From Streptomyces celluloflavus (lineage in GTDB: Bacteria > Actinomycetota > Actinomycetes > Streptomycetales > Streptomycetaceae): a stretch of DNA of 64,000 nt. Below, in pieces: positions 2,942 through 20,170 of the stretch. The first letter of the stretch is position 1. Each line of letters starts with the position of its first letter. The stretch is taken from assembly GCA_000720995.1 (NCBI GenBank), contig JOEL01000016.1, forward strand, positions 1 to 64,000. Direction: 5' to 3'. The translations under genes were made by a program, and so were the position numbers. The notes below the pieces were generated by a model, which worked only from the letters and a program-made list of their open reading frames with translations, was not told the origin of the DNA and ran no database searches.

Positions 2942-3047
2942 GACTGTTCCTTCACCGTTGGTGCCGTGCGGCGTTGGTGCGGTGCGGCCGGGCGCGGCCG
3001 GGGCGGCGGCGGGCTGTGCGGCGGGCATCCGGGTGCGGGCGTCGCCG

Positions 3048-3431
3048 TCAGCCCGAGACCAGACCGGCCGCCAGCTCGCGCAGCCGCAGCCGGGCGACCG
3101 CGAGATTGGCCTGTGCGCGGTCCAGCCAGAGGTAGAGGTACGTCTGGCTGTCGAAGGCCGTGTCCACGAAGCGGATGAGGTGGTAGCCGCCCCCGGTCGT
3201 GATGATGATGTCCTCCAGCGGCGGGCCGGTGGTGCCCGCGGTGTCGAACGTGGCGTTGCGCGCCACGGCCTGGACCACATCGGCGGTGTCCGCGGCGGTG
3301 GCCTCGTGATCGGCGTGCGGCGCCCGCCCGGCCGTACCGAGCGTCAGTCCGCTGGTCCAGTCGATCAGGCCGGCGCCCAGTACGCCGGGGATTCCCATGG
3401 CTTGGGACAGCACCTGGTCGATACCCGGCAC
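3048..3431 (-). CDS. Roadblock/LC7-like small protein (cassette member 1)
   Basis: A 127-residue protein starting at GTG 3431, with GAAGGAG seven bases upstream; the upstream extension is discarded for lack of a ribosome site. Sequence features are helix IDQVLSQAMGIPGVLGAGLI, a DWTSGLTLGTAG hairpin, EDIIITTGGGYHLIRFVD, and YLYLWLDRAQANLAVARLRL at the end. These match the last gene of the cassette (1172-1546) position by position, so the two are duplicates that diverged. First gene of the cassette; 533 bases of mostly non-coding DNA separate it from the NRPS genes upstream, so it probably has its own promoter. Confidence 0.7.
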   Translation of the reverse strand: MPGIDQVLSQAMGIPGVLGAGLIDWTSGLTLGTAGRAPHADHEATAADTADVVQAVARNATFDTAGTTGPPLEDIIITTGGGYHLIRFVDTAFDSQTYLYLWLDRAQANLAVARLRLRELAAGLVSG

Positions 3432-3964
3432 GGGGGAGCTCCTTCTCGACGGTGGGGACGGGAGTGCGTCGGACGGGCCGGCGCCGGACGGGTCCGTGGC
3501 GGACCGGGCCGCGGTGCCGGCGACGACGCCGACGGGCGCTCCCTCGTGGCAGTGGGTGGGAGAGCCTGCACGGAAGGTTAGGCATCCGCGGGTGACGCGC
3601 ACATGCCTTCAGAGATTGTGCGGGGCAATTGACGTGTTCTCGCCCTCCCGGTGCCGGGGCCGCCCGGACGGCACCCGCGGTCGGCTGCCAGGAGGGTCAT
3701 GGACGGCCGCCGCAAGCCCACGCGGCGGCCCACCACGCGGTATGCGGCGGCGGGGCGCGCACCACGGCGCCGCGCCGCGCGCCGCGCCCGGCGGATACGC
3801 GGTGACCGGCCGCGCATCGACTTCCGGCCGACTTCGTCGGAAGCGGTTGACCCGGGCACACCCCACCGGGAGAGACGACCGGGGCCGGGCGGCGGTGCGC
3901 GGACAGCACGGAGCGGCGCCGCTCCTGGGGGAGAGCGGCGCCGCGGTCTCGATGACCCGGAGGG
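3432..3964. other. Intergenic region between NRPS operon and roadblock cassette
   Basis: No convincing gene. The open frames here lack ribosome sites and family-like sequence. It contains the terminator hairpins at 3910-3943 next to the NRPS stop. The rest should hold the cassette promoter on the minus strand, but no clear -35/-10 pair was identified. Confidence 0.5.
3910..3943. terminator. Nested hairpins after the last NRPS gene
   Basis: The bases 3910-3925 are a perfect 16-base palindrome (GGAGCGGC then GCCGCTCC). An alternative 11-base stem pairs 3914-3924 (CGGCGCCGCTC) with 3933-3943 (GAGCGGCGCCG) across an 8-base loop. It lies about 20 bases beyond the stop of the C-T-reductase gene, as expected for the end of the biosynthetic operon. 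Confidence 0.6.
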
Positions 3965-6841
3965 TCAGCCGTTGCCGGGCGTCACCGAACCCAGCATCGC
4001 GGCGATCACCGAGCGCCAGTCCTCACCCGGCCGCTCGGCCAGCTCGGCGGCGAGCGTACCGGCGCGGTAACGGCGGCGGTGCAGCAGCTCGGGCGCACCG
4101 GGCGCGGCGTCCGCGGTGTGACGGATCTCGCTGCCGCTGCCGAGAAGCCGGACCAGTTCGGCCGCGAAGGCATGCCACTCCACATGGCCGCCGACGGCGT
4201 TCACCACCCCGTCCACCGGGCGTTCGGCGCAGTGGGCCAGGGCGCGCGCCAGCGCCGCGGCGTGCACCCACGGCGCCCCGTACCAGCCGAGCTCCGGCGA
4301 CGGCAGCTCGATCGGCGCACCGGCCAGGGCGGCCTGGTACAGCTCGCCGGTCGCCCCCCAGCGCAGCTGGTCACGGAGCCGGGCGTGCGGCCCCCACACG
4401 ATGGGCGCGCGCAGCACACTCGCCCCGCCGCGCCCCTCCTGGCCCGCGGCGGCCAACACCAGCCGCTCGCAGTCGAGTTTGGCCCGCCCGTACCCGGTGA
4501 AGGGCTCGGCGGGCGCGGTGTCCTCGGCGACATCGACGACCGGCGGCTGCCCGTACGCGTCCACGCTGCTGACGAAGACGAACGTGCCCTGCCGCCAGCC
4601 GTCCAGCAGCGCCCGCATCGCCGCAAGGTCCACCTCGGGGGAGGTGAAGGTGCAGGCGGAGTGGATCACCGACTCGGCACCGGCCACCGCCGCCCGCAGA
4701 CTGTCCAGGTCACCGAGGTCCCCCTCGGCCACCTCGACGCCGTCCGCCGCGACCAGATGCGCCGACTCCGGCCGGACCAGCGCCCGTACGGGACGGCCGC
4801 GCGCCGCCAGTTCGCGCAGGACGAAGGCGCCGACGCCGCCGGTCGCCCCGGTGACCAGGACCGTCCCGGGACGGGCCGCCGCACGCCGGACGGCTCTGGG
4901 GGCGGCGGCCTCGCGTTCCCGGGCACGCGCGTCCAGCAGCGCGGTGAGCGCCCGCGGGGTGCGGTGCTCCATCACGTCGAGACCGGTCAGCGGGAGGCGG
5001 AACCGCTCGCGCAGCCGCTCGGCCAGCCGGACCGCCAGCAGGGAGTGCCCGCCGAGCAGGAAGAAGTCGGCGTCCGGCGCGGGCTCCTCGCCCAGCAGCG
5101 CGCCGAACGCCTCCAGAACGGCCGGCCCCCGCGCGCCCAGTGGCACCTCCGCATCCCGCGGGGCCCCGGGCAGCCGCCCGTGGTCCACCGCCCCGTCCGC
5201 CGTGCGCGGCAGCGCGTCCAGCACCGTCACCGCGGCCGGGACCTGTTCGGGTGCCAGCCGGGAGCGCAGCGCGATCCGCAGCTCCTCCGGGACGGGCGCA
5301 CCGGCCGGGCCCGGCACCACGTACGCGAGCGGCGCCTGGCCCGTGCGCTCCAGCAGCACGGCCTCGGCAACCTCGGGACGGGCCAGCAGCAGCGCCTCGG
5401 CGGGGTGGACCGGCGCCGGGTCCGGCGCCACCCGCGCGGGGCGCGACAGCGGCCGGCCGGGGTCCGCCGCCACCTCCGTCAGCAGTGTGGCGAAGGTGCG
5501 CAGCAGCCGGTGGGCGGCCTCCTCGTCCAGCCGGGCGCGGTCGTACTGCACCAGGCAGCGCGGGGCGAGCCCGTCCCTGGCCTCCTCGATGTAGAAGCCG
5601 AGGTCGAACTTGGCGGTGCCCAGGTCGATGTCGACGGCTTCGCTCTCGGTCCCGGGCAGCCGCAGCGCGACGGGCTCCCGCAGCACATCGGCGGTGACCG
5701 ACAGCAGCGGATTGCCGTCCCGGTCGCGGGCCGCGCCGCCCAGCCGCTCCACGATCAGGTCGAACGGCACATCGCGGTGAAGCTGCGCTTCCAGCATCGC
5801 GTCCCGGACCCGTGCCAGCAGTTCGCCGAAGTCCTCGGCGCCGGTCAGCTCGGCGCGTACCGGGAGCGTGTTGACGCAGAGCCCGACCAGATCGCGCAGC
5901 CCGGGGCGGTCGCGGTGGCTGCTGGCGCAGCCGAGCACCAGGTCCTCGCGGCCGGTGGCGTCCAGCAGCGTGGCGAACGCCCCGGCGAGCACGACCATGA
6001 AGAGCGTGGCGCGGTGCTGTGCGCCCGTCGCGCGCAGACCGTCCAGGACCGCGGGCGACAGCGGTTCGGCGAGCACCCGGCCCTGCCCGCGCGGTACGGC
6101 ACCGGTCTGCGCCGACGGTGCGGGCAGCGGCACCGGGCGGGCCCCGGCGAGGCGGGTGAGCCAGTACTCCAGACCGTTTTCGAGCGCCGCCGCGTCCGCC
6201 TGCTCGCGGCGGGCGTAGTCGCGGTACCGAGGGGCGGGACCGTCAAGACCGGTCGGCGCGCCGCCGTCGGCCGCGGCCCGGTAGAGCGCGCCGAGCTCCC
6301 GCCCGACGACGTCCAGCGAACCGCCGTCGATGGCGATGTGATGCAGCGTCAGGACGACGGTGTGATCCTGCGGTGCGTGCCGTACGGCCAGCGCGCGCAG
6401 CACCGGTCCGGTGGCCAGGTCGAAGGGGCGGGCGGCGGCCTCGTACAGCTGGCGCCCGACGTCCTCGGCGGCGTCCACCACCTGGACCGGCACCGGGGCG
6501 GGGGCGTCGATCTCCTGGTACGGCTCGCCGTCGTGCTGCCCGTACCGGGTGCGCAGCACCTCGTGCCGCTCGGTGAGCGCGGTCAGCGCCCGGGAGAGGG
6601 CGTCGACGTCGAGCGGGCCGCGCAGCCGGGCGGCGAACGGCACGTGGTACCGGGCGCCGCCCTGGCCGAGCCGGTCCATCAGCCACATCCGGCGCTGGGC
6701 GTACGAGAGCGGCACCGGGCCGCTCTCGTCGGCGGCGGACGCGGTGGCACCGGCGTCGGCCGCGGGGGTTTCGGCACGCCGCTTGCGGGCGAGCCGGAGC
6801 AGCGCCTCCTGGCGGGCGGCGTCGTCGGGGGCGGTCGTCAT
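3965..6841 (-). CDS. NRPS terminal enzyme: C - adenylation stub - T - reductase
   Basis: 958 residues. Start ATG 6841 overlaps the upstream A-T gene's stop by four bases. Domains: condensation (residues ~45-480) with intact active site H167-H168-x3-D172-G173; a ~100-residue stub matching only the C-terminal subdomain of an adenylation domain (~490-560), in which the catalytic A10 lysine is replaced by Ala551 (T-A-D-G-A-V-D-H); carrier domain with phosphopantetheine Ser600 (LLGGHSLL); and an NAD(P)-binding thioester-reductase domain (~655-958) with [12 protein letters not shown] and a Y-G-R-A-K catalytic pair. The whole N-terminal adenylation core is missing, so its carrier must be loaded by one of the A-T proteins in trans. 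The reductase implies release as an aldehyde, or a cyclic imine or alcohol derived from it. Last gene of the operon. Confidence 0.88.
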
Positions 6842-8841
6842 CGGTCTGTCTCCAAGGCGTCCGGGGCGTCCGGGCCGGCCAGGACGCCGGCGCGGGCGTC
6901 GGTGTGCCGGGCGGTGTCGTGCGGGGCTTCGCCGGGGGCGTCCTCGTGCGCGGCCAGCAGGGCCGCTTCGACGAGTTCCGCCTGTCCGGCGACGGTGGGG
7001 GCGGTCATGAACGCGGTGAGGGTGAGGGGCACGCCGAGGTCCTCGCGCAGCTCCTCGACGACGCCCAGCGCCAGCAGCGAGTGGCCGCCCAGGGCGAAGA
7101 AGTTCGCGTCCGGCCGGGTCACTTCGAGGTCCAGCGCCTGGCTCCACAGCTCGGCCACGGCCTGCTGGATCGGGGACAGGGCGGCCGTCGCGGGCGCGGG
7201 ATCCGGGCCCGGTGCGGCGGCCGGGGTGTCACCGGCGGACACCGTGCGGTCGGCCAGCGCCCGCCGGTCGATCTTGCCGGTGCCGGTCAGCGGCAGTTCC
7301 GCCACCACCGGCCAGGCGTTGGGCACCATGTGCGGCGGCAGCTGACTCTCCAGATGGGCGCGGAGCGCGGCCGCGTCGGGGGCCGCGCCGTCCGCCGGGA
7401 CGATGAAGGCGATCAGCCGCGCGTCGTCGGGCTGCGGCCGTTGGACGACCACGGCCGCGTTCGCCACCTGCGGATGGGTGCGCAGTACATGCTCGATCTC
7501 GCCCGGCTCGATCCGGAAGCCGCGGACCTTGACCTGGTCGTCGACCCGGCCGTGGAAGTCCAGGACACCGTCGGGGCGGGCGGAGACCAGGTCGCCGCTG
7601 CCGTAGATCCGCCCGGCGGCCGGATGGTCGCGGAAGCGCTCGGCGGTGAGTCCGGGCTGGCCGAGATAGCCCTGGGCGAGCCGGGGCCCGCCGATCCACA
7701 GCTCACCGCGGGCCCCGGCCGGCACCGGCTCGCCGTCCGCGTCCAGGACGAGCGCGGTCGCCCCGGCGCACGGCCGGCCGATGGGCGGCGGGCCGTCGCA
7801 GTCGGCGTCGGTGACCCGGTGGGCGGTGGCGAAGGTGGTGGCCTCGGTCGGTCCGTAGCCGTTCACCAGCTCCAGCCACGGGTGGCGGCGCAGCACCGCG
7901 CGGGCGTGCCGCGCGGAGAGCGCCTCACCGCCGACGAGCACACTGCGCAGCACGCCGAAGAGCGGCGACCGCCGTGCGACGAGGTGGTGGAAGAGCGCGG
8001 CGGTCAGCACGGTCACGGTGGCGCCCAGCCGCTCCGTGTCCCGGGCCAGACCGTCCAGCGAGAGCCGGTCGGCGGTGGAGACCGCCACCGCCGCCCCGGC
8101 GGCCAGCGGGCCCCACACCTCGAACGTGGCGGCGTCGAAGGTCACCGGCGAGTGGAAGAGCACCCGGTCGCGCGCGGTGAGCGTCACATAGTCCGGTTCG
8201 GCGACCAGCTCCGCGACGCCGCGCTGGGTGACGGCCACCCCCTTGGGGCGGCCGGTCGACCCGGACGTGAACATCACATACGCGACGGCGCCGGGGTCGT
8301 ACGGCGCGAACGGGCCGAAGCGGTCGAAGGGTTCGAGCGGTTCGGCCGGGGCGTCGGGGCCGTCCGTCTCCTCGGAGTCCGGTTTGGCCTCGGGCAGCGC
8401 CAGTGCCCGGTCCTCGGGGATGCCCGCGGCCTCCAGCAGGGCCGGCTCGCCGACCGTGAGCACGGCGTCGGTGTCGGCGAGCATCGCGTGCAGCCGCGGC
8501 CGCGGGTAGACGGGGTCCAGCGGTACGTAGTGGCCACCGGCCCACCAGACGGCCAGCTGGGCGATGACGGTACGCGGGGAGTTCGGCAGCAGCAGGCCGA
8601 CGGCGTCCCCGGGGCGTACGCCGCGGGCCCGCAGGGCAGCCGCGAGACGGCCGGCCTCCTCCATCAACGCGTGGTAGGTCAGGGCCGTTTCGGTGTCGAG
8701 GACGGCCAGGGCGTGCGGGGTGGCCCGCGCGTGAGCGGCCACCAGGCCCAGCGTTCCGGCGGCGGCCGGTCCGGGCGCGGGGCGGGGCGGGAGAGGACTG
8801 GGGGACGGGGACACGGCGGACTCTCTCTCGGAGACGGACAT
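6838..8841 (-). CDS. NRPS A-T didomain, Val-like specificity code
   Basis: 667 residues. Start ATG 8841 lies one base after the stop of the preceding gene. Adenylation domain (~40-545) has the A3 motif [13 protein letters not shown]4/A5 FDAATFEVW and [10 protein letters not shown]7 GSGDL, and A10 TGTGKIDR with its lysine. The carrier domain follows with Ser588 (ALGGHSLL). Reading the ten pocket positions by hand against GrsA gives D-A-F-V-L-G-G-T-F-K, close to the valine code D-A-F-W-I-G-G-T-F-K, so a branched aliphatic amino acid is likely. No condensation domain is present, so the loaded residue must be passed to a C domain on another protein. The C-terminal ~40 residues are a charged, possibly docking, tail. 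Confidence 0.9.
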
Positions 8842-8842
8842 C

Positions 8843-10744
8843 TCACACACCTGCCGTGGCGGTGGCCCGCCGGGCATCCAGCAGCGCGGCGAGGCCGCGC
8901 AGATCGGGCTGGCGGAGCAGCTCCGGCGCCCGCAGCCGCACCCCGCAGCTCTCCTCCAGGGCCGCGAGCAGCCGGGCCGCGGCGAGCGAGGTGCCGCCGG
9001 CGTCCCGGAAGGAGCCGTCCAGGCCGATCGCCGTGCCGCCGCCCAGCACCTCCCCGCAGACCTTCAGCACCAGCTGCTCCGTGGCGGACCGGGGACCCTC
9101 GCCCCGGGCGGGCGCGGGCGCCGCGTCCGGCGCGTCGGCGGCCAGCAGCGCGGCCCGGTCGACCTTGCCGTTGGTATCCAGCGGGAAGTCCGTCACCTGC
9201 CGGACGACGGCCGGTACCGCCTGGGCGGGCAGCCAGTCGCGCACACCGCGCACCAGCTCCGCGGTGGCGGGCGGCTCCTGTCCCGGGTGCGGCTGCACGA
9301 AGGCGATCAGCTCGACGACTCCCTCGCCGGTGGTGCGGGCGGCGACCACGGCCCGCCGTATCCGCGGGTCGTGCTCGAACGCGGCCTCGACCTCGGCCGG
9401 TTCGATCCGCACCCCGCTCACCTTGACCTGGTCGTCCATCCGGCCGAGGAACTCCAGCACTCCGTCGGCCCGCATCCGCACCCGGTCCCCGGTGCGGTAG
9501 ACCCGGTCGATACCGGTGCCGCCCTCGGCATCGGGGCCGGTCAGACCGGGCGGCGGGGCCACGAACCGCCGGGCCGTCAGCTCCCGGTCCAGATACCCCA
9601 GCGACAGCCCCGCACCGCCGATGCGCAGCTCGCCGGGTGTGCCGCGCGGGACGATCCGCCCCTCGTCGTCGGTGACGCAGACGGCCACCCCGGCCACCGG
9701 CGAGCCGATCGGCGGGGGAGTACCGGTGTCCTCGCGCCCGGCGTCGAGGGCGTGCATGGTGCTCATCACGGTGGCTTCGGCGGGCCCGTACGCGTTGTGC
9801 ACCCGCGCGGTGACCTCCGGCGCGGGCCAGGTGCGCAGCCGGTCGCCGCCGACCACCAGATGCCGCAGCGCCGGGAGCGCGGGCCAGGGCCGCGCGAAGA
9901 CCGACTCGGCGAGCGGGGTCGGCAGGACGGCGACCGTCACGCCCGCGCGCCGCCACCAGTCGGTGAGCGCGTCCGGGTCCCAGCGGACCTCCTCCGGCGG
10001 GACGCTCAGCCCGGCGCCGGAGGTCAGCGCCGCCCACAGCTCCTTGACGTGCGGGTCGAAGGAGACCCCGACCAGCAGGCTGTGGCGGTCACCGGGACCG
10101 GAGCCGATGCGCTCGGCGTAGCCGCGCAGCATCGAGGCGAGCGAACCGCCGCCGACCGCGACCGCCTTGGGCGTACCGGTCGAACCGGAGGTCAGCACCG
10201 CGTAGAAGGTGCCCTCGGGAACGGCCGGCGGCGCCGCGGCGGCCGGTCCGAACGCGGCGGTCACCTGCCCGGCGGCGTTGGCTCCCGCCGTCGGCAGCGC
10301 CAGCGCCTGCCGCTCCCCGGCCCGGTACGCCGCGGGCAGCAGCCCGGGGTCGCCGATCAGGCAGGGCACGCCGAGCCGCTCCGTCACCGTCGCCAGCCGC
10401 CGCTCACCGGGCGTCGGGCCCAGCGGCAGATAGACGGCGCCCAGCCGGGCCAGGCCGACGGCCACCGCGACCAGCGCGACGGACCGGTCCAGGCACACGC
10501 CGACCAGGTCACCGGGGGCCACCCGGCCGCGCAGCGCGTCGGCGACGTGCTCGGCCTGCTGCGCCAACTCGGCGTAGGTCCAGGACAGTTCGCCGTCCTC
10601 GACGGCCGGCGCGGCGGGGGTCTCGCGGACCCACCGGTCGAAGTGGCCGAGGACGTCCTCGGGGCGGGCGGGCGCGGCGGCCGGGCCGTACGCGATGCTC
10701 GGCGCGGGCAGCGATCCGCCCGGCGCTGTCGATGTGGTGCTCAT
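8843..10744 (-). CDS. NRPS A-T didomain, unusual specificity code
   Basis: 633 residues from ATG 10744, which has AGAGGAAC upstream. An earlier ATG at 10810 overlaps the dehydrogenase stop and would add 22 residues; it lacks a good ribosome site. Adenylation motifs: A3 LTSGSTGTPKAV, A5 NAYGPAEAT, A7 YRTGDR, A10 TNGKVDR. Carrier Ser586 sits in A-G-G-T-S-L, where the usual GGHSL histidine is threonine. Hand-aligned pocket: D-P-K-V-V-G-A-V-M-K, from an odd F-D-P-H-V-K-E-L-W segment; it matches no code recalled, so the substrate is unassigned. It lies directly downstream of the dehydrogenase gene, which may act on the residue this protein carries (an analogy with prolyl-carrier oxidation). Confidence 0.88.
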   Translation of the reverse strand: MSTTSTAPGGSLPAPSIAYGPAAAPARPEDVLGHFDRWVRETPAAPAVEDGELSWTYAELAQQAEHVADALRGRVAPGDLVGVCLDRSVALVAVAVGLARLGAVYLPLGPTPGERRLATVTERLGVPCLIGDPGLLPAAYRAGERQALALPTAGANAAGQVTAAFGPAAAAPPAVPEGTFYAVLTSGSTGTPKAVAVGGGSLASMLRGYAERIGSGPGDRHSLLVGVSFDPHVKELWAALTSGAGLSVPPEEVRWDPDALTDWWRRAGVTVAVLPTPLAESVFARPWPALPALRHLVVGGDRLRTWPAPEVTARVHNAYGPAEATVMSTMHALDAGREDTGTPPPIGSPVAGVAVCVTDDEGRIVPRGTPGELRIGGAGLSLGYLDRELTARRFVAPPPGLTGPDAEGGTGIDRVYRTGDRVRMRADGVLEFLGRMDDQVKVSGVRIEPAEVEAAFEHDPRIRRAVVAARTTGEGVVELIAFVQPHPGQEPPATAELVRGVRDWLPAQAVPAVVRQVTDFPLDTNGKVDRAALLAADAPDAAPAPARGEGPRSATEQLVLKVCGEVLGGGTAIGLDGSFRDAGGTSLAAARLLAALEESCGVRLRAPELLRQPDLRGLAALLDARRATATAGV

Positions 10745-10806
10745 GGTTCCTCTGTTCACGGAAGGCGCCGGGGGTGCGGCAGGGGACGGGACGGGGCGGG
10801 GCGTGC

Positions 10807-12009
10807 TCATCCCAGCCCCATGGCGCGCGCGATGATCACTTTCTGGATCTCCGAGGTGCCCTCGATGATCGTCATCATCCGGACGTACCGGTACAGGAAC
10901 TCCAGCGGATGGCCCCGCACCCAGCCGGTCGCACCGTGCACGTGCAGCGCCCGGTCCACGACGCGGACCGCGGTCTCCGAGGAGGTCAGCTTGGCCAGCG
11001 CGGCGTTCTCCGGGGCCTCGGTGCCCGCGTCGACCAGCCGCGCGCAGGCGAGCGTCAGCAGCTTCGCCGCCTCGACCTCCGCACGGCTGGTGACCAGGTG
11101 CTCCTGCACATGCTGGTAGGCGCCGATGCGCTCGCCGAACGCCCGGCGCTCCCGGGCGTACTCGATGCCCTGGGCCAGCGCGTACTCGGCGATCCCGTTG
11201 CACATCGCGGCCACGACGAGACGCCCCCGGGAGAGGCTGTCGATGCCGTTGCCCATCGCGGCGCCGACCCCGTCCGCACCGCCGATCACGGCGTCCGCGG
11301 CCACCCGCGCACCGTCCAGCAGCAGTTCGAAGAGCGGCTCGCCCGACATCCCGTCATAGCGCTGGCCGATCCGCAGCCCGGGGTTGTCCGCGTCGACGAC
11401 GAACGCCGTCGCCGCGCCCTCGACGGAGGCGATGACGATCGCGAAGTCGGCGCGGTCGGCGTTGCTGACGAAGGTCTTGCGGCCGTTGAGGACCCACCCG
11501 CCGCTCGCCTCGTCCCGCACGGCGGTGGTGGTGAGGTGGAACGCGTCCGACCCGGCGTGCGGTTCGGTGAGCGCCAGACAGCGCACCGCCTCACCGCGCA
11601 CCAGCGGCACCAGATACGCCGCTATCTGCTCCGGTGTGCCGTGCCGCAGCAGCGGGCTGGGGCCGTCGGAGCCGGCCAGCGCGTACGGCGCGAGCGGGCA
11701 GCCGCTGCGCCCCGCGGCGTGGTGCAGCTGCACCACCGCGCTGAACGGCATACCGGAGCCGCCCAGCTCCTCGGGGTAGTCACCGGCGTAGAAGCCCAGC
11801 TGCGCCGAGCGGGTGCGGACGTAGTCGCGCAGCTCGGTGGGGGGCATATCGACGGTCTCCGGGAGCTCGGCCGCCAGCGGCACCAGCTCCTTGCGGAGGA
11901 ACGACTCGAAGGCGTCGACCAGTTCGCGGTGGTCGGCCTCCAGGACCGACGACGGCGAGGAACCGGAGGACGTACGCGACGTACCGGTCGTGGCGAGAGG
12001 GGTGCTCAT
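10807..12009 (-). CDS. Acyl-CoA dehydrogenase-like flavoenzyme of the NRPS cluster
   Basis: 400 residues, starting with an ATGA overlap to the C-A-T gene (12006-12009). Family hallmarks: FAD/substrate-binding CLALTEPHAGSDA, the WVLNGRKTFVSNAD segment, the helix YARERRAFGERIGAYQHVQEH, and the C-terminal IIEGTSEIQKVIIARAMG containing the position of the catalytic glutamate. Being translationally coupled inside an NRPS operon, it most likely oxidises a carrier-bound aminoacyl or acyl group, as in prolyl-carrier dehydrogenases, to give a dehydro-amino acid. It could instead make a fatty-acid starter, but no fatty acyl-AMP ligase is present. The first 25 residues are Ser/Thr-rich linker. Confidence 0.9.
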   Translation of the reverse strand: MSTPLATTGTSRTSSGSSPSSVLEADHRELVDAFESFLRKELVPLAAELPETVDMPPTELRDYVRTRSAQLGFYAGDYPEELGGSGMPFSAVVQLHHAAGRSGCPLAPYALAGSDGPSPLLRHGTPEQIAAYLVPLVRGEAVRCLALTEPHAGSDAFHLTTTAVRDEASGGWVLNGRKTFVSNADRADFAIVIASVEGAATAFVVDADNPGLRIGQRYDGMSGEPLFELLLDGARVAADAVIGGADGVGAAMGNGIDSLSRGRLVVAAMCNGIAEYALAQGIEYARERRAFGERIGAYQHVQEHLVTSRAEVEAAKLLTLACARLVDAGTEAPENAALAKLTSSETAVRVVDRALHVHGATGWVRGHPLEFLYRYVRMMTIIEGTSEIQKVIIARAMGLG

Positions 12010-15000
12010 GCGGTGGCCTCCTTGACGGCGCGGGCCTGGTCGGCCAGGACGGGGTTCTGGAACAGCACGCGCAGCGGCGGACGGCTGCCGAGCCGGGGCT
12101 CCAGCCAGGCCGCCAGCTGGGCGGCCAGCAGGGAGTGCCCGCCCACCTGGAAGAAGTGCGAGGACGGTGTGAAGCGGTCGTGGCCGAGCACCTCCCGCCA
12201 GCCCTCGGCGACGAGCGCGACGGCCGGGTCGGTGTTCTCCGCCGCCGCGTCCTGGGCACCGGCCTGCCCGGCCTCCGGAAGGTCGGCCGCGGTCCGGGCC
12301 AGCGCCACCCGGTGCGGTTTGCCGCCCGCCAGGGTCGGCAGCGCGTCCATCCGTACCCAGCGGACCGGGACGAGCGCGGCGGGCAGCCGCCGGGACAGCT
12401 CGGTGTGCAGGGCCAGTTGGTCCGGTTCGGCGGCCGACTCCAGGAAGCCGATCAGCCGCGGTCCGGCGGCCGCCGTGGCGTCGAGGACCACCGCACAGGA
12501 CTGGCCGCCGAGCACGGCGGACGCCGCCGCCTCGATCTCCTCAAGCTCGATGCGGTACCCGCGCAGCTTGATCTGGTGGTCCCGGCGGCCGAGGAAGCAG
12601 ACCCGGCCGGCGGTGTCCCGGTAGCCGACGTCTCCGGTGAGGTAGACCCGCTCGCCCCCGAGGGCGTCCACGGTCACGAACCGGGCGGCGGTGGTCTCCT
12701 TGTCGCCGAGATAGCCCTCGGCCAGCCCGGCGCCCGCGATGGCCAGTTCACCGACCGCGCCCGCGGGCAGCGGCTGCCGCCCCGCGTCCAGCACATGCAC
12801 CCGCGTCCCCGCCAGTTCGGTGCCCAGCGGCACCTCGGCACCGTCCGCCAGCTCCGCGCGGGTCACCTCGTGGACGGTGGTGGTGATCGCCGCCTCCGTC
12901 ACGCCGTACGCGTTCAGCACGGTGGCGTCCGTGGCGTCCAGCAGCGCGCGCAGCGCACCGACCGGCAGCCGCTCACCGCCGAGCACCAGCAGCCGGGGCG
13001 CGAAGCGTCCGTCGGCCAGCGCCTCGCACAACTCCGCCCGTACGGCGAGGAGATAGCTGGTGGGCAGGTTGGCGACGGTGATCCGGCGCGCGGCCAGCAT
13101 CGCGATCAGCTCCGTGGCGGTGGGCACCTCCCGCTGCGGCAGGACCAGGCAGGCACCGGCCAGCAGCGACGGCAGCACCTCCTCCAGCGCGACGTCGAAG
13201 GACGGCTGGGCGAAGAGCAGCACCCGGTCCCGGCCGGTCAGCGCGAACCGCTCGGCGGCCGCCCGCGCGTGCTGGGCCAGCGCCGCCCGGCCGACCACGA
13301 CCGGCTTGGGCAGACCCGTCGAACCCGAGGTGTGGATGATGTACGCCGCGCCCTCGACGGATTCGCAGGCCACCGCGGCGGGGAAGTCCGGCCCGTCCAG
13401 CAGCGCGAGCGGCAGCCCCTCGGCGGGCAGCGCGAGCGCGCTCTCGCGGGTGGCGAGCACCAGCGCCGGAGCGAGCCGGCGCAGCAGCGTCTCCAGGCGC
13501 GTGGCCGGGTCGTTGGGGGAGAGCGGACAGTGCACGGCGCCGATGCGCAGACAGGCGAGCAGGGTGACGAGGGAGTGCGTACCGCGCGGCAGCACGGCGG
13601 CCACCGGCTGCCCCGCCGTCACCCCGGCGGCGCGCAGCCGGTCCGTCAACTCCTGGACCGACCGGTCGAGTTCGCCGTACGAGAGCTGCCGGGCGCCGTC
13701 CACCACGGCCGGCCGCGCCGGGTCCTGCTGAGCCAGGGAGTCCAGGACGGCGGCCGTGCCGCCCTCCGCGGCGGAGTCGGTCGCCACCGTCTCGGCACCG
13801 CTGTCCTGGGAGCCTGCGCCCAGGGCGGCGAGCGGCGCGTCCGGCGTGTCCAGATAGGCGCGGAGCACCGCCAGGAAACGCCGCGACAGCAGCCGGACGG
13901 TCTCCTCGGTGAACAGGTCCCGGTCGTAGTCCCACACCAGGGTCATCCCCGCGGCGCCCTGCCGCTCCCCGATCACCCGCCGGTCGTCCGGGATCAGCAC
14001 CAGGTCGAGGTCGAAGCGCGTGGTGCCGGTGTTGAAGCCCTCGTGCAGCGACACCTCCAGCTCCGGCACGTCGATCTCCGGCAGCGCCGCGTCGTGGGCG
14101 CTGAACATGACGCTGAACAGCGGGTTGTCCGCACCGCTGGTGTGCAGACCGAGCGCGCGGGTCAGCTCCTGCACCGGCACCTCCTGGTGCGGCAGCGCCC
14201 GGATGAGGGTGTCGGTGACATCGTCGATCGCGGCGCTCGCCCCCGACACCGGGTCCAGCCGCAGTCGCAGCGGGATGGTGTTGACGAACATCCCCACGGT
14301 CTCCTCGAACCCCCGCGGCCGGTTGCCGACCGCCGTACCGACGACCAGATCGGCGCGCCCGCTGTGTCGGCGCAGCACCTCGGAGAACAGCGTGAAGAGG
14401 GTGGAGAACGGGGTGTGCCCCTGGTCGCGGCTGTGCGCCCGCAGCCGTTCGGCGAGGTCGGCGCCGATCGCCTGGCGCAACTGCCCGCCCGCGTGCCGGC
14501 GCTGCGCACCGGGCCGGGCCAGACCGGGCAGCGGCAGGTCGAACGCGGCGTCGCGCAGTTCGGCCTCCCAGTGGGCCAGGCTCGCCCGGCGCTCCCGGCC
14601 GGCGGTGGCCCGGACATGCTCCTCGTACGAGCGGGCCGCGGGCAGCTCGACCGGTTCGCCGAGCCGCTGCGCCCGGTAGGCGGTGAACACGTCGCGCAGC
14701 AGGATCGCGAAGGAGTGCCCGTCGTGGATGAGGTGGTGCTCGACATGCACGATCCGGTGGTGCCGCGCGCCGAGGCGGGCCAGCCGCCAGCGCAGCAGCG
14801 GCGCCTCATAGGTGTCGAGGGGCGTCTCGGCCTCGGTGCGCAGCAGGTCCTGGAAGGCGGCCTCGGGGTCGGCCTCCTGCGAGAGGTCGACGGTGCTCAG
14901 GCGCGGGATACATCGTTCGCGGACCCGCTGCCCGGGTATCTCGCCGGACGCGGCGACGAGTTCGAGCCGCAGGCCGGCGTGGCGGGCGAGCGCGGCCGCC

Positions 15001-15134
15001 AGTCCGGCGCGCAGCGCGTCCTCGTCCAGTGCGCCCCAGAGGTCGAGAGTGGCGGTGAAGTTGTAGGCGCGGCTGCCGGGCAGCATCTGCTCGTGCAGCC
15101 AGACGATTTGCTGCGATGGGGAGAGCTCGAACAT
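12006..15134 (-). CDS. NRPS C-A-T module
   Basis: 1042 residues from ATG 15134, with GAAGGA seven bases upstream; the longer open frame is Pro-rich and rejected. Condensation domain (1-~440) with H133-H134-x3-D138-G139. Adenylation domain (~490-960) with HTSGSTGLPKPV (A3), NAYGVTEAA (A5), YLTGDV (A7), and GGKPHR at A10, which keeps the lysine but departs from the usual GKVDR. Carrier Ser1001 (QVGGHSLL). Hand-read pocket: D-V-E-N-V-G-A-I-T-K; an acidic residue at the third position can hint at a basic substrate, but this code is not recognised. It is the only complete elongation module in the cluster. Confidence 0.9.
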   Translation of the reverse strand: MFELSPSQQIVWLHEQMLPGSRAYNFTATLDLWGALDEDALRAGLAAALARHAGLRLELVAASGEIPGQRVRERCIPRLSTVDLSQEADPEAAFQDLLRTEAETPLDTYEAPLLRWRLARLGARHHRIVHVEHHLIHDGHSFAILLRDVFTAYRAQRLGEPVELPAARSYEEHVRATAGRERRASLAHWEAELRDAAFDLPLPGLARPGAQRRHAGGQLRQAIGADLAERLRAHSRDQGHTPFSTLFTLFSEVLRRHSGRADLVVGTAVGNRPRGFEETVGMFVNTIPLRLRLDPVSGASAAIDDVTDTLIRALPHQEVPVQELTRALGLHTSGADNPLFSVMFSAHDAALPEIDVPELEVSLHEGFNTGTTRFDLDLVLIPDDRRVIGERQGAAGMTLVWDYDRDLFTEETVRLLSRRFLAVLRAYLDTPDAPLAALGAGSQDSGAETVATDSAAEGGTAAVLDSLAQQDPARPAVVDGARQLSYGELDRSVQELTDRLRAAGVTAGQPVAAVLPRGTHSLVTLLACLRIGAVHCPLSPNDPATRLETLLRRLAPALVLATRESALALPAEGLPLALLDGPDFPAAVACESVEGAAYIIHTSGSTGLPKPVVVGRAALAQHARAAAERFALTGRDRVLLFAQPSFDVALEEVLPSLLAGACLVLPQREVPTATELIAMLAARRITVANLPTSYLLAVRAELCEALADGRFAPRLLVLGGERLPVGALRALLDATDATVLNAYGVTEAAITTTVHEVTRAELADGAEVPLGTELAGTRVHVLDAGRQPLPAGAVGELAIAGAGLAEGYLGDKETTAARFVTVDALGGERVYLTGDVGYRDTAGRVCFLGRRDHQIKLRGYRIELEEIEAAASAVLGGQSCAVVLDATAAAGPRLIGFLESAAEPDQLALHTELSRRLPAALVPVRWVRMDALPTLAGGKPHRVALARTAADLPEAGQAGAQDAAAENTDPAVALVAEGWREVLGHDRFTPSSHFFQVGGHSLLAAQLAAWLEPRLGSRPPLRVLFQNPVLADQARAVKEATA

Positions 15135-15237
15135 GGTCCATCCTTCGGTGGTGGATGTGGGGAGCTGCCCGCCTGAGGCCGTCGGTCGGACGGCGGGCGG
15201 CGGGGGGTGCGGGGGAGGGGCGGTGGCCCCGTGGGGG

Positions 15238-16617
15238 TCAGCCGGCCGCCGCGGCGGCATTGAGCCGGTCCCGCAGCAGCCGGGTCAGACCGGCGAAGGC
15301 GTCCTCGGCGCGGGCATCGGACGCGGCGTCCCGGTCCCAGGCCATCCGGACGAGCAGTTCGGTCCCGTACGAGACGGAGACCGCGAACGGCGCCTGGAGC
15401 GGCCGGCCGTCCACATGGATCTCGCGCCCGGCGGCGTCGCCCAGGGCGAGCGGCGGGCGCCGGTGCAGGTCCTCGAAGGTCAGCAGACCGTCCAGCGCAC
15501 CGGACCAGGCGGCACCGGCGGTCCGGGCCGCGCGCACCACCTCGTCGAACGGGGTGTCGGCGTGGTCGAGATCGTCCCACCAGGCGTCGGCCCCGGCACC
15601 GGGGAGCGCCGGGTGGACGACGGTGTTGAGGAAGCAGCCCAGTACGGGCGGTGCGGCGGCGGGCCGACCGCCCCAGGGGTAGCCGAGCAGCGGGACCCGC
15701 TCCATCCCGTAGGGGTCCGTCCCGTGCAGGGCGCGCGCGATGCCGGCGCAGGCGTCGAGCAGTACGGGGAAGACCATGGCCCGGCCGTCGTGCGCTCCGG
15801 CCGGCAGCCGGACCTGGGCGGCGCCCGTCGGCCGCGGCGGCTGCGCGTCGGACGGGGCGGCGCCGGCGTCCTGCGCCGCCGCGCCGTCCGGGCGGGCCGC
15901 GGCCAGCCGCTGCGCCCAGTACGCGAGGGAGCGCGGTGTCGAGGCCCGTTCCTCGGCCGCCAGCTGCTGCTGGACCGCCTCCCGGTACCCGGCCGCCTCC
16001 TCGGCGACGAGCGCGGCCGGGGCGTCGCCGGGGCCGAGCCGGTCGCGGTAGGCGACGCCGAGATCCGCGCTGAGCCGGCCGAGCGACTGCTCGTCGCAGG
16101 CCACATGGTCCAGGGCGAGGGCGAGGAGCTCGGTGGGCTCCCCGGCCGCCGGGTCGTCGGCGAGGAAGCAGCGCAGCGGCGGCCCCTCGGCCGACCAGGC
16201 CGCCAGCGCCCGGCGCAGCGCGTCCGCACCGCTCTCACCGGGGCGCGGCCGCACCCGGCTCACCTGGGCCTCCGGCGCGGCCAGGCGCTGTACGGGCGTG
16301 CCGCGCAGCACCCCCGGCCGGGCGCGCAGCGCGGGGTGGACGGCGGCCAGATATCCGGCGGCGGCCCGTAGCTGGTCCAGGTCGACGGCGGCGCGGGGGA
16401 AGGCGAAGAAGAGCGGGACGACATCGGGCCGGCCGCCGGGGGCCAGCCGCCGGGCGAGCAGGAACCGCCGCTGCGCGCCGGTGACCGGCAGCAGATCGGC
16501 GGGCTCGCCCGCGCCCTCGGCCGCGCGCCGGTAACGGGCGCGGTACTGGGCCGTGATGGAGGGGGCCGCGGGGGCCGTGCGGGTATCGGTGCCGATGCCG
16601 GGGTGGTGGGTGTGCAC
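15238..16617 (-). CDS. Stand-alone condensation-domain-like protein with altered active site
   Basis: 459 residues, GTG start at 16617 with AGAGAGG six bases upstream. The fold signs of an NRPS condensation domain are visible: N-terminal 'LLPVTGAQRRFLLARRL', a mid segment near 160-180, and later motifs including VLGCFLNTVV and LDGLLTFEDLH, the usual C4-C5 region. The core motif reads D170-H171-V-A-C-D175-E176 instead of H-H-x3-D-G: the second histidine and the aspartate survive, the first histidine and glycine do not. It could be a slow or non-condensing C domain, an acyltransferase or cyclising partner, or a structural helper. It sits 103 bases upstream of the C-A-T gene and 84 bases below the exporter. 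Confidence 0.78.
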   Translation of the reverse strand: MHTHHPGIGTDTRTAPAAPSITAQYRARYRRAAEGAGEPADLLPVTGAQRRFLLARRLAPGGRPDVVPLFFAFPRAAVDLDQLRAAAGYLAAVHPALRARPGVLRGTPVQRLAAPEAQVSRVRPRPGESGADALRRALAAWSAEGPPLRCFLADDPAAGEPTELLALALDHVACDEQSLGRLSADLGVAYRDRLGPGDAPAALVAEEAAGYREAVQQQLAAEERASTPRSLAYWAQRLAAARPDGAAAQDAGAAPSDAQPPRPTGAAQVRLPAGAHDGRAMVFPVLLDACAGIARALHGTDPYGMERVPLLGYPWGGRPAAAPPVLGCFLNTVVHPALPGAGADAWWDDLDHADTPFDEVVRAARTAGAAWSGALDGLLTFEDLHRRPPLALGDAAGREIHVDGRPLQAPFAVSVSYGTELLVRMAWDRDAASDARAEDAFAGLTRLLRDRLNAAAAAG

Positions 16618-16701
16618 GATGACCTCTCTCGCGTCGTCGTTGACGCGGGGGTTCCGGCGGACGTTCTCGCGGGGCGCGGAAGCAGCCAGCGGGGTACGGG
16701 A

Positions 16702-18075
16702 TCAGGTGGTGACGGACGGCGGGCGGGCCGATTCGTCCGCGGGGTCGGGGTCCGTCCCGTCCGCGGCGGCGGGGTCGGGCTCGGCAGGGGGAGCGGCGTC
16801 CTGGTCCGGGTCCGGCAGATCACGCATCCGCCGCAGCGGTGAGAGCAGCAGCGGCAGCGGTACGAGGAGGAATCCGGCCGCGCACACCCACACCGCGGCG
16901 CGCGGCCCGGCCGCCCCGGCGATGGCGCCGCCGGCCAGCGCACCGAGCGGCATGGTGCCCCACACCATGAACCGCAGCGTGGCGTTCATCCGGCCCAACA
17001 GCGCGTCCGGGCAGAGGAGTTGACGGAAGCTCACCTGGGCGACGTTGTAGACGACCGCGCCGAAGAAGACCGCGGCGGAGGCGACGGCGAACCAGATGGC
17101 GGCGGCGCCGCGGCCGGCCAGCGGCCACAGCAGCGCGAACGGTCCGGACACCACGGTGGCGAGCCAGATGACCCGGGCCTGTCCCACCATCCGCGCGATC
17201 GGTCCCGCGCACAGTGCCCCGGTCAGGCCGCCGACGGCCGAGGCCGACAGCATCAGGCCCAGCACACCGGGCGGCAGGCCGAGTTCCCGCACCAGGAAGA
17301 CCGTCTGGACGGACACCAGCATCGCGGAGAAGAAGTTCGCCACCCCGGTCGAGACGGCGATCATGCGCAGGAGGGGGTGGCGCAGCACGAAGGCCAGGCC
17401 CTCCTTGATCTGCGCGCCCAGGGATACGCCCGGGACGGCCTCGGGCCGCGGCTCGCGGGTGCGGATCCCGCGCAGGCACACCGCCGATACGAGATAGCTG
17501 ACCGCGTTGGCGACGATGGCGGCCGGGGCGCCGAGGATCTGCACCAGGGCGCCGCCGAGCCCGGGGCCCGCCACCTGCGCGGCCGAACGCGCCGTCTCCA
17601 GCGCCCCGTTGCCGGAGACCAGATGCTCCCGGGGCAGCACCCGCGGCAGATAGCTCTGGTGCGCGACGTCGAAGAAGACGGTCGCGACGCCGGTGACGAG
17701 AGCGACCACATAAAGCTGAATCATCGTCAAAACATCGAAGGCGGCGGCCAGCGGCACACTGCCCATCGCCACCGCCCGGACCAGGTCCGTACGGATCAGC
17801 AGCGGCAGCCGTCGCATCCGGTCGACCCAGGCTCCGGCGGGCAGTCCGATGAGGAGGAACGCGGCGGTCTCGGCGGCGGTGAGCAGTCCGACCTGGAAGG
17901 CGGGGGCGTGCAGTCCGATGACGGCGACCAACGGCAGTGCCACCAGGGTCACTTGGGTGCCGATCTGGCTTACCGCCGCTCCGGACAGCAGCCACCGGAA
18001 ATCGCGGTGTCGTAGGAGACCGCCGCGGGCTGTGGGCCGGCTGGCGGCTGGGGAGGAGGTCACATGGGCAGACAT
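16702..18075 (-). CDS. MFS exporter of the NRPS cluster
   Basis: 457 residues with about 12 hydrophobic segments, for example SGAAVSQIGTQVTLVALPLV near residue 35 and AETAAFLLIGLPAGAWVDRM near 70; the latter holds the conserved loop after TM2 (G-x-W-x-D-R). It resembles enterobactin-exporter-type MFS proteins, which often accompany nonribosomal peptide genes. The C-terminal ~45 residues are acidic, Pro/Asp-rich and cytosolic. No Shine-Dalgarno sequence precedes the ATG, so it may be leaderless or start slightly elsewhere. First gene of the operon and the likely product exporter or self-resistance gene. Confidence 0.85.
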   Translation of the reverse strand: MSAHVTSSPAASRPTARGGLLRHRDFRWLLSGAAVSQIGTQVTLVALPLVAVIGLHAPAFQVGLLTAAETAAFLLIGLPAGAWVDRMRRLPLLIRTDLVRAVAMGSVPLAAAFDVLTMIQLYVVALVTGVATVFFDVAHQSYLPRVLPREHLVSGNGALETARSAAQVAGPGLGGALVQILGAPAAIVANAVSYLVSAVCLRGIRTREPRPEAVPGVSLGAQIKEGLAFVLRHPLLRMIAVSTGVANFFSAMLVSVQTVFLVRELGLPPGVLGLMLSASAVGGLTGALCAGPIARMVGQARVIWLATVVSGPFALLWPLAGRGAAAIWFAVASAAVFFGAVVYNVAQVSFRQLLCPDALLGRMNATLRFMVWGTMPLGALAGGAIAGAAGPRAAVWVCAAGFLLVPLPLLLSPLRRMRDLPDPDQDAAPPAEPDPAAADGTDPDPADESARPPSVTT

Positions 18076-18577
18076 TTGGTGATGTAGAGGGCCTGGTCAA
18101 AACGGCAGACCTCTTTCCGGACAGCTTGCACCGCATACCGGACGCTCCAGAATGGTTTTGCGATGAACGGTCCGTTCTCTGCGGGCAAACGGCACTTGGC
18201 GGCATGCGGCCCGGTGGCGCCCGTGACGTGACGGGTCGTCGGGTTTCCGGTCATCGAGCGAATGTCTTATTCTCGTTCTCGGCAGTATAAGGAACTTGTC
18301 AGCGCTGGTGACTTGAGATGCGGAGTGTGTTAAAGCCGCGACTGCCGTACCGGGATTCGCGCCGCGGGCGGTGCCCGAAGCCCAAGAAATCGCCACCCGG
18401 CAGCGGTTGGGAATCGCGGGAGAAACAATCCGGGACTTTGGTCCCGGGTCGCAGGGCGTTGGTCCTCTATTGGCCCGGTCCGGCTTGTGAAAGCGTTCTG
18501 CGCTGCCTGATCATTGTTTTCGGGGGCACGCGCCGGAATGCGGCGCGGCAAAACGCCGCTGCGGGAGAGGGGTTGAG
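18076..18577. other. Divergent regulatory region, exporter / response regulator
   Basis: About 500 bases without a gene. It must hold the promoters of the NRPS operon (minus) and the response regulator (plus). It is richer in A/T than its surroundings. A 13-base palindrome lies at 18165-18177. A T-A-T-A-A-G hexamer near 18286 could be a -10 on the plus strand, but no good -35 accompanies it. Confidence 0.5.
18165..18177. promoter_or_regulatory. 13-bp palindrome, candidate operator
   Basis: GAACGG-T-CCGTTC is a perfect palindrome with six-base arms, about 90 bases upstream of the exporter start in the divergent region. It could be bound by the adjacent LuxR-type regulator. A palindrome this short can arise by chance, so confidence is low. 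Confidence 0.35.
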
Positions 18578-19249
18578 GTGACCGCGTCCGTGCTGATCGT
18601 CGACGATCAGGTCCTCATCAGATCGGGACTGCGGCAACTGGTGGGCGCCTCGCCCGCGTTCGAGGTCGTGGCCGGAGACGGTGCCGAGGCGGTCGCGCAG
18701 GCCAGGGCGCACCGGCCCGATGTGGTGCTGATGGACGTCCGGATGCCGCGGGTGGACGGCGTCGCCGCCACCGCGCAGCTGATGCGCTTCGCGGCTCCGC
18801 CGAAGGTGCTCGTCCTGACCGGTTTCGATGTCGACGACCGGGTGCTGGACGCACTGGAGGCCGGGGCCTGCGGTTTTCTCTTCAAGGACCTCACGCCGTG
18901 GCAACTGGAGACGGCCATGCGCACGGTGCTCGCCGGCGGCCGGGTGATCGCCCCCGCGGTGCTGGACAGCCTGGTGCGCCGCGCCACCGGCCCCGCGCGG
19001 AGCGGGGCCGTACCCGACGGGCTCGGCCGGCTCGGCGGCAGCGAGCGCCGGGTGCTCGCGCTGATCGGGTCCGGGCTGACCAACGCCCAGATCGCCCGCC
19101 GGCTGCATCTGTCGCAGGCGAGCGTGAAGACCTATGTCTCCCGCGCGCTCGCGAAACTCGGCCTGGACAACCGCACCCAGGCGGCCATTCTCGCGTACGA
19201 AGCGGGCCTGGCCGGGACCGAATGCGGGTGGGACACGGACGCGGTCTGA
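18578..19249 (+). CDS. NarL/LuxR-type response regulator (orphan)
   Basis: 223 residues, GTG start with GAGAGGGGTTGAG upstream. Receiver domain residues ~4-120: acidic D9-D10, phospho-acceptor D53 in VVLMDVRMP, and T/K positions in LVLTGF and LFKD. C-terminal LuxR-type helix-turn-helix at ~150-205: ERRVLALIGSGLTNAQIARR, then SQASVKTYVSRALAKLGL. No histidine kinase is adjacent; the nearest kinase-like sequence is the broken CvnA-like relic just downstream. It diverges from the NRPS operon, so it is a good candidate for its pathway regulator. That link is contextual only. Confidence 0.88.
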   Translation: MTASVLIVDDQVLIRSGLRQLVGASPAFEVVAGDGAEAVAQARAHRPDVVLMDVRMPRVDGVAATAQLMRFAAPPKVLVLTGFDVDDRVLDALEAGACGFLFKDLTPWQLETAMRTVLAGGRVIAPAVLDSLVRRATGPARSGAVPDGLGRLGGSERRVLALIGSGLTNAQIARRLHLSQASVKTYVSRALAKLGLDNRTQAAILAYEAGLAGTECGWDTDAV

Positions 19250-19392
19250 ATCCTCTCCGGAAAAATCCGGCCGCCCGCCGGGACGGAAATGCCGTGCACG
19301 CACAGGAGAAAAACCATCTTCCGGTGACACCGGACCCGACTTTTCCCGGACGGAGGGCCGGGCGCGCCTCCCCGGTATGGGCGGCGAGTCCC

Positions 19393-20170
19393 ATGAAAGA
19401 GCCCATGAAGAAGAAGTTGAATTCTGTCCGAAAAGGCGGACGGGGCCGGCCGTCCGCACCCGGCCGCGGCCACTTACGCCCGTCCCGGCCGCGCGACTGG
19501 CGCCTGACGACCCGTATGACCGTCGGCCTCGCGCTCCCCGTAGCGCTCGCTCTCGGCCTCGCCGTGCCCCGCGTCACCCACTCCCTGGACCGCGCCGAAC
19601 GGCTCGCCGGGGACGGGACCACGGTCCGCCTCGTGCTCTCCGCCACCCGGCTCGCGCACGCGCTCCGGAACGAACGCGACCTCGCCGCGCGCACACCCGG
19701 CCGGACCACCGACGGCGTACGCACCCACCGCGCCGTGACGGACCGGGCGCCGGCCGATTTCCGGACCCGCGTCGACCTCGCCGCTGCCGGGCTCCTGTGT
19801 CCGGCGGCGCGCTCCCGCGCCGGGTCCCCCGCCCGACGACGCCCGACGCCCCGCCGGCGGCGTACGACGCGTCCACCGCGGGGACGGCCCCCCGCGCACC
19901 GCAGCCGCGGCCGACGCCCGACGAACTGCGCCGCCGGGTCGACGGATTCCACGGCGGCGCGCGGCGCGGCCGCCGGGCGCCCGGCACGCTCCCCGACGAC
20001 CGGACCACGGGCCACGGCGACGGCCGGCCCGTTAGCCGGAGCGGTACGCCCACGGGCGGTGCACGCGCTACGCGCCGCCGGACACGGGAGCCCGGCAGCG
20101 ACGGGGACGGATACGGGGCCGGGGAGCCGGACCGGGGCGGATCCCCGGACCGGGACCGACGCGAGGAGGG
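19393..20170 (+). pseudogene. Decayed CvnA-like sensor kinase relic
   Basis: From ATG 19393 a frame runs M-K-E-P-M-K-K-K, then DWRLTTRMTVGLALPVALAL (a membrane segment) and a sensor-like helix TRLAHALRNERDLAARTP, as in the N-terminus of conservon CvnA kinases with a nitrate-sensing-type domain. After ~19790 this frame turns into Arg/Pro-rich nonsense. A different frame then becomes protein-like (PPAAYDAS, then PTPDELRRRVDGFH). So at least one frameshift is present, and the kinase core (H-box, ATP-binding domain) is absent. The relic ends directly before the CvnB-like gene, the position of cvnA in a conservon. Two short genes instead of one relic cannot be excluded. Confidence 0.6.

What the first reader, a model, noticed from the sequence alone, without database searches (positions are those of the whole stretch)
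3965..18075. Unassigned NRPS-reductase cluster with split A-T enzymes and carrier-acting dehydrogenase
The gene order exporter, C-like, C-A-T, acyl-CoA dehydrogenase, A-T, A-T, C-T-reductase does not match any pathway I can name. There are more A-T pairs than C-A-T modules, so residues must be passed between separate proteins. The reductase end implies an aldehyde, imine or alcohol; a dehydro-residue is likely from the dehydrogenase. A small reduced di- to tetrapeptide, perhaps a protease inhibitor or cyclic imine, is a reasonable guess but only that.
Basis: inference. Interest (0 to 1): 0.75.

Follow-up and report, generated by a model that had tools for sequence, protein, structure and literature searches.

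The report
Chymostatin-like protease-inhibitor gene cluster
These bacterial genes almost certainly build a small peptide aldehyde of the known chymostatin/antipain family of protease inhibitors, so the cluster is a new member of a described kind and not an unknown pathway.

Summary
The seven genes are real, at the stated coordinates and in the stated order. But the cluster is assignable: its anatomy is that described for antipain/chymostatin/omicsynin clusters (ureido tetrapeptide aldehydes). Five NRPS proteins carry only three A domains. The C domain of the C-A-T protein reads EHHLIHDG, the published signature of urea-forming domains and the only such DNA site in this 8.68 Mb genome. The last protein ends in a short extended-SDR release domain, as described for OmnF. 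An acyl-CoA-dehydrogenase-like gene is the candidate arginine cyclase (capreomycidine). Strong homologues of the stand-alone C protein occur in 31 of 295 sampled genomes of the genus. Of 29 fetched neighbourhoods besides the window's, 28 keep the gene order and 27 the SDR. The dehydrogenase occurs in 9 of 295 genomes, all 9 among those 31. Predicted product: aromatic residue-CO-capreomycidine-Val/Leu/Ile-aldehyde residue. Open: a lysine in the pocket of the loading A domain. No characterised cluster sequence could be compared directly.

The parts
16702..18075 (-). MFS exporter; probable start near 17952
   Evidence: PF07690/PF05977; MFS homologue beside the C protein in 46 of 47 loci (L070 begins inside the C protein) and 9 of 9 of L071-L079
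15238..16617 (-). Stand-alone condensation protein; motif LDHVACDE in place of xHHxxxDG (second His and Asp kept); predicted to join the ureido dipeptide to the third residue
   Evidence: role inferred
12006..15260 (-). C(urea)-A-T protein (probable start 15134); A code read as DVENVGAITK, taken as Arg
   Evidence: substrate inferred
14718..14741 (-). EHHLIHDG, signature of urea-forming C domains
   Evidence: signature from PMC11212132
10807..12009 (-). Acyl-CoA-dehydrogenase-like flavoprotein, predicted dehydrogenase:cyclase making capreomycidine on carrier-bound Arg; presumed catalytic Glu in IIEGTSEIQ
   Evidence: reaction inferred
8843..11203 (-). A-T loading protein (probable start 10744); A code read as DPKVVGAVMK, with Lys at pocket position 239
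   Evidence: aromatic substrate inferred
6838..8877 (-). A-T protein for the third residue (probable start 8742); A code read as DAFVLGGTFK, Val/Ile/Leu-like
   Evidence: substrate inferred
3965..7147 (-). C - A remnant (AMP-binding_C only) - T - SDR protein (probable start 6841)
3968..4882 (-). Short extended-SDR release domain ([10 protein letters not shown], YxxxK) predicted to release the peptide as an aldehyde
   Evidence: role of the described OmnF domain in PMC12783407

Best explanation
The cluster makes a chymostatin-type ureido tetrapeptide aldehyde. Inferred order: the A-T protein at 8843-11203 loads an aromatic residue; the C domain of C-A-T joins it to that protein's own Arg through a urea carbon, reversing chain direction; the flavoprotein dehydrogenates the carrier-bound Arg and the guanidine adds back, giving capreomycidine; the stand-alone C protein adds Val/Leu/Ile held by the A-T protein at 6838-8877; the C-T-SDR protein adds a fourth residue, charged in trans by one of the three A domains (most simply the aromatic one), and the SDR releases the chain as an aldehyde. 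Four T, three C and three A domains account for four residues, three bonds and one A domain used twice. The MFS protein exports it. Shown here: domains, motifs, synteny, co-occurrence of the dehydrogenase with this cluster. Inferred: every substrate, the product and its function.
For: Domain set equals the published description of the omicsynin cluster (five NRPS genes, three A domains, R domain of about 300 residues; PMC12783407). EHHLIHDG matches the Curea signature EHHXXHDG, reported absent from MIBiG C domains of other function (PMC11212132); the DNA pattern occurs once in the genome, which holds 31 Condensation matches; 54 of 55 readable loci keep it, some genomes counted twice; in the exception, L080, the real C-A-T gene lies outside the stretch and another gene was read. 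Hits to every gene in the order MFS-C-CAT-(ACAD)-AT-AT-CTR in 43 of 47 loci and 9 of 9 of L071-L079. ACAD homologue at E<=1e-80 in 9 of 295 genomes, all 9 with the C protein. In 11 of 11 readable ACAD loci, as in the window, the C-protein motif ends CDE; of 33 loci without ACAD where that side is held, 31 end CDG (counted from the rows; phylogeny may explain it). An arginine cyclase (AnpI/OmnC) belongs to these clusters (PMC12783407); on-NRPS capreomycidine formation by dehydrogenation and Michael addition is stated in PMC10367076. S. rimosus makes chymostatins A-C, assigned to a 16.5 kb cluster scored 66% to deimino-antipain (PMC9045324, PMC13098539).
Against: No characterised antipain, chymostatin or omicsynin sequence was found in the collections I searched, so orthology rests on anatomy, motifs and text. 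That AnpI/OmnC is an ACAD-like flavoprotein is recalled (Cui 2021, not held); the passages I read say only 'arginine cyclase', and tie AnpI to antipain, which sits awkwardly with my reading of ACAD-lacking clusters as the antipain type. 22 of the 31 genomes with the C protein lack the ACAD. The SDR model (pLDDT 73.6) resembles sugar epimerases. The pocket Lys is not what most relatives show. A-code readings are manual, with reference codes recalled.
Confidence: 0.88

Rival explanations
1. Same peptide aldehyde family, but the dehydrogenase leaves a dehydro-residue, or acts on another residue, so the second position stays Arg (antipain/MAPI type).
For: Only 12 of 47 loci have the ACAD, so the assembly line seems to work without it; the Arg-type A code is nearly the same with and without it (final Thr in all ACAD loci, mostly Ser in the others).
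Against: An arginine cyclase is described in these clusters (PMC12783407), and carrier-bound capreomycidine formation is documented (PMC10367076); the ACAD is the only redox gene of the operon besides the SDR.
Confidence: 0.07
2. The ACAD oxidises a carrier-bound proline to a pyrrole, as RedW and PigA do.
For: NCBIfam RedW model matches with 199 bits; prolyl-carrier dehydrogenases are among the solved relatives.
Against: 199 bits is far under the curated 650; acryloyl-CoA reductase scores higher (218 bits). None of the three A codes resembles the recalled Pro code.
Confidence: 0.02
3. The terminal SDR is an epimerase or dehydratase-like tailoring domain and release is by another enzyme.
Against: Deleting the corresponding OmnF domain abolished the omicsynins and gave peptides with a C-terminal carboxyl group (PMC12783407); no other release domain is in the operon.
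Confidence: 0.03

Closest known systems
Omicsynin cluster (omn), Streptomyces sp. 1647
   Same: Five NRPS genes with three A domains, arginine cyclase OmnC, short SDR release domain in OmnF, relaxed Val/Leu/Ile/Met pick by OmnE (PMC12783407)
   Different: omn also has a TetR regulator omnR and an extra SDR omnG; neither was seen among the ten flanking frames scanned, where an LuxR-type response regulator lies beside the exporter. Sequences not compared
Chymostatin cluster (S. rimosus BGC 35; S. mobaraensis)
   Same: About 16.5 kb, chymostatins A-C assigned to it; the gene set expected for chymostatin
   Different: Sequence not available here; the window's loading A domain has a pocket Lys whose meaning is unknown. 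S. mobaraensis work known from a reference title only
Deimino-antipain cluster (MIBiG BGC0002051)
   Same: Discrete NRPS modules, urea-forming C domain, reductive release
   Different: Product has Arg/Cit rather than capreomycidine (recalled); ACAD-lacking relatives here may be of this type (inference, and AnpI is tied to antipain)
Muraymycin and faulknamycin capreomycidine steps
   Same: Capreomycidine made on the NRPS by dehydrogenation and Michael addition (PMC10367076)
   Different: Different products; no shared assembly line shown here

Membership tests
Antipain/chymostatin/omicsynin ureido tetrapeptide aldehyde clusters | Highly discrete NRPS: five NRPS genes, three A domains | tested here: met
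   description in PMC12783407
Antipain/chymostatin/omicsynin ureido tetrapeptide aldehyde clusters | Urea-forming C domain with EHHXXHDG | tested here: met
   EHHLIHDG in the C-A-T protein, only site in the genome
Antipain/chymostatin/omicsynin ureido tetrapeptide aldehyde clusters | Terminal extended-SDR release domain of about 300 residues with TGxxGxxG, S, YxxxK | tested here: met
   C-terminal stretch of 305 residues with these motifs
Antipain/chymostatin/omicsynin ureido tetrapeptide aldehyde clusters | High sequence identity to a characterised cluster | not testable with these tools
   No characterised cluster recognised in the collections searched
Antipain/chymostatin/omicsynin ureido tetrapeptide aldehyde clusters | Strain makes a ureido peptide aldehyde | not testable with these tools
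   needs metabolite analysis
Chymostatin subtype (capreomycidine at position 2) | Cluster-borne arginine dehydrogenase:cyclase | tested here: inconclusive
   An ACAD-like protein with the presumed catalytic Glu is present and, at E<=1e-80, seen only in genomes with the C protein, but it was not compared with AnpI/OmnC and its substrate is unknown
Canonical NRPS thioester reductase (PF07993, TIGR01746) | Match to the family model over cut-off | tested here: not met
   No PF07993 row for the protein or at this place in the genome; TIGR01746 31.7 bits against 213
Prolyl-carrier dehydrogenase RedW/PigA | Match to NF045652 or NF053553 over cut-off | tested here: not met
   199 against 650 bits and 163.5 against 500

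The most novel reading that the evidence does not exclude
The window and its two nearest relatives in the tree (L025, L026) form a clade whose loading A domain has Lys at pocket position 239, where most relatives have Leu or Met (Gln in L064 and L065; the same Lys in L069, outside that clade). They may activate a polar or acidic residue instead of Phe at the ureido end, and perhaps also at the aldehyde, giving a chymostatin-like inhibitor with an undescribed end group and protease range.
Probability: 0.25. Interest if true: 0.35.

Novelty: new member of a known kind. Interest (0 to 1): 0.2.

Why it matters
It turns an 'unassigned' cluster into a testable chymostatin-type assignment, and shows a natural comparison: syntenic assembly lines with and without the candidate arginine-cyclising flavoprotein, which could be used to learn which residue it acts on and which parts had to adapt. 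For the scan as a whole it shows that a tool-less reading missed the urea signature that points to the family.

Tried and rejected
Considered and rejected: pyrrole formation from proline (RedW/PigA scores far under cut-off); release by a canonical thioester reductase (terminal domain is not PF07993); stand-alone C protein as something other than a C domain. Tried without result: plasmid records for a characterised cluster (595 records with a match, one covering 80% or more of the query, the S. nigrescens plasmid, unannotated there); papers with the A-domain codes (0 papers); a named producer among the relatives (PMC9113118 passages confirm antipain from Planomonospora as a genus but do not name ID67723). 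The primary papers on deimino-antipain (Maxson 2016), capreomycidine (Cui 2021), omicsynin (Sun 2022) and the Planomonospora survey are not held and are known only through citing papers or recall; Juettner 2020 only from a reference list. No NRPS R domain showed up among the 50 fold matches listed for the SDR in either search; this excludes nothing.

The tree has 48 rows, the window and 47 of the 57 loci L024-L080. It was rooted on L043 by choice, so 'ACAD lost' is a suggestion only. In the structure alignment A1 the window stands with 22 of the 26 named loci (L052, L055, L056, L070 left out); A2 holds 14 loci, most of them cut short at the locus end.

Full report
What is there. The last also keeps an AMP-binding_C remnant between C and T. 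Stop/start overlaps at 12006-12009 and 6838-6841 point to one operon. Upstream, on the other strand, is an LuxR-type response regulator (18578-19249); searched against the loci (whose flanks are limited), it has one match, in L047, 47% identical and about 4 kb from the exporter there. Of the three downstream frames scanned, one is a urease accessory gene and two have no family; the only Condensation matches on this contig are the two in the cluster.

The urea signature. The C domain of the C-A-T protein reads EHHLIHDG. Yu and van der Donk report EHHXXHDG as the signature of urea-forming C domains, absent from MIBiG C domains of other function, and say that the loading A-T usually sets the terminal residue and the Curea-A-T the internal one (PMC11212132, passages). 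The matching DNA pattern occurs once in the 8.68 Mb genome, here, with 0 hits for the pattern read backwards, although the genome has 31 Condensation matches. It is kept in 54 of 55 readable loci, some genomes counted twice; in the exception, L080, the C-A-T gene is not in the stretch and another gene was read, while L043 of the same genome has EHHLTHDG.

Relatives. The C protein has a match at E <= 0.001 in 109 of 295 genomes of the genus, but most of these are weak matches to other C domains; strong ones (E <= 1e-100) are in 31 of 295, the window's own included, and the next place apart from these lies at 9.2e-16. I fetched 29 of the other 30 neighbourhoods (G073 was left out, its genes lie on separate contigs) and 26 named loci: 23 Streptomyces, two Kitasatospora, one Planomonospora. 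In one search, 43 of 47 loci have hits to every gene in the order MFS-C-CAT-(ACAD)-AT-AT-CTR, the last gene often cut by the locus end; three end at contig ends (L045, L055, L070) and one (L043) has another tail. All 9 of L071-L079 show the order too, though in L073 only the C domain of the last protein was found. The SDR is found in 27 of 29 fetched neighbourhoods, missing in L043 and L073.

The dehydrogenase. It sits between CAT and the first A-T in 12 of 47 loci. At E <= 1e-80 it occurs in 9 of 295 genomes, and all 9 also have the strong C protein; in G073 the two lie on different contigs. So it goes with this pathway and does not behave like a housekeeping enzyme; but 22 of the 31 genomes do without it. 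The presumed catalytic Glu is kept in the window and in the 12 other ACAD loci read (its role is recalled from acyl-CoA dehydrogenases). RedW and PigA models score far under their cut-offs. In the tree (rooted on L043) it is present in the window's clade and several others and absent from one large clade and from L064 and L065. The C-protein motif follows: it ends CDE in the window and in 11 of 11 readable ACAD loci, and CDG in 31 of 33 loci without ACAD where that side is held, the two exceptions being L064 and L065 (rows). That fits a capreomycidine-making and an arginine-keeping type, which is inference; common descent alone could give the same pattern.

The release domain. It is an extended SDR (305 residues to the end of the protein) with TGATGGVG and YxxxK, PF01370 rather than PF07993, and its model (pLDDT 73.6, pTM 0.77) is closest to nucleotide-sugar epimerases. 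The omicsynin paper says much the same of its own family: extended-SDR motifs, about 300 residues, distinct from other NRPS R domains; deleting the OmnF domain abolished the omicsynins and gave peptides with a carboxyl end (PMC12783407; read: abstract, text parts 1 and 2 of 5, section 8, part of the references and passages).

Assignment. The same paper describes five NRPS genes with three A domains, homologous to deimino-antipain and chymostatin clusters, and an arginine cyclase OmnC, 76% identical to AnpI. The text I read does not say what protein family OmnC and AnpI belong to; that they are ACAD-like flavoproteins is recalled from Cui 2021, which is not held. It also ties AnpI to antipain, although it lists omnC among genes that reported antipain-like clusters lack, so the border between the two types is not clear to me. 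PMC10367076 (passages) states that capreomycidine can form on NRPSs by dehydrogenation and Michael addition. S. rimosus ATCC 10970 makes chymostatins A-C, assigned to a 16.5 kb cluster scored 66% to deimino-antipain (PMC9045324 and PMC13098539, passages). The window fits this kind at the three points I could test (see the membership rows). Four T, three C and three A domains give a tetrapeptide with one A domain used twice, as chymostatin with two Phe would need (chymostatin structure recalled).

Substrates. Codes read by hand (positions and reference codes recalled): CAT DVENVGAITK (same group in the relatives, taken as Arg), second A-T DAFVLGGTFK (Val-like), first A-T DPKVVGAVMK. Most relatives have Leu or Met as third letter of the last code, L064 and L065 Gln; the Lys is shared with L025 and L026 (one clade, support 1.0) and, separately, with L069. 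What it selects is unknown.

Limits. Novelty is low: a new member of a known kind.

Noticed in passing
L080 (G105:C1:1430000-1449900) 6161-18932 and L043 8109-16900: A relative with the same head (MFS, C protein, urea-forming C-A-T, dehydrogenase, first A-T) but another tail: a stand-alone A domain, C-T, a KS-AT-T polyketide module and a second dehydrogenase-like frame of 589 residues, and no SDR match. This resembles the threopeptin snaB/snaO or epoxyketone tails (PMC11212132), so it may make a ureido-capreomycidine enone or epoxyketone: a swap of the reactive end group.
   Followed up: partly
L073 (G012) 2351-6587: The last protein keeps a C domain, but no carrier or SDR domain was found in the two frames scanned after it; the cluster may be decayed there.
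   Followed up: partly
L022 (G042:C20:18346-19623): One TAG stop inside the stand-alone C protein of this relative, by the search's own count: a broken gene or a sequencing error.
   Followed up: no
L064, L065: Two loci without the dehydrogenase gene, with Gln where the window's loading A domain has Lys and with the CDE motif typical of dehydrogenase-bearing loci, sit among such loci in the tree: a possible recent loss.
   Followed up: no
L024 (Streptomyces nigrescens HEK616 plasmid SNP1): A related cluster without the dehydrogenase lies on a 1.07 Mb linear plasmid, unannotated in this copy.
   Followed up: no
window 18578-20671: LuxR-type response regulator, a frame with no family and a Roadblock/LC7 protein upstream of the exporter on the other strand; of the four flanking proteins tested only the regulator has a match in the loci, in L047.
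   Followed up: partly
window 44956-46503: Fused Ada zinc-binding domain, AraC-type HTH and AlkA N-terminal domain, probably a methylation-damage regulator/repair fusion.
   Followed up: no
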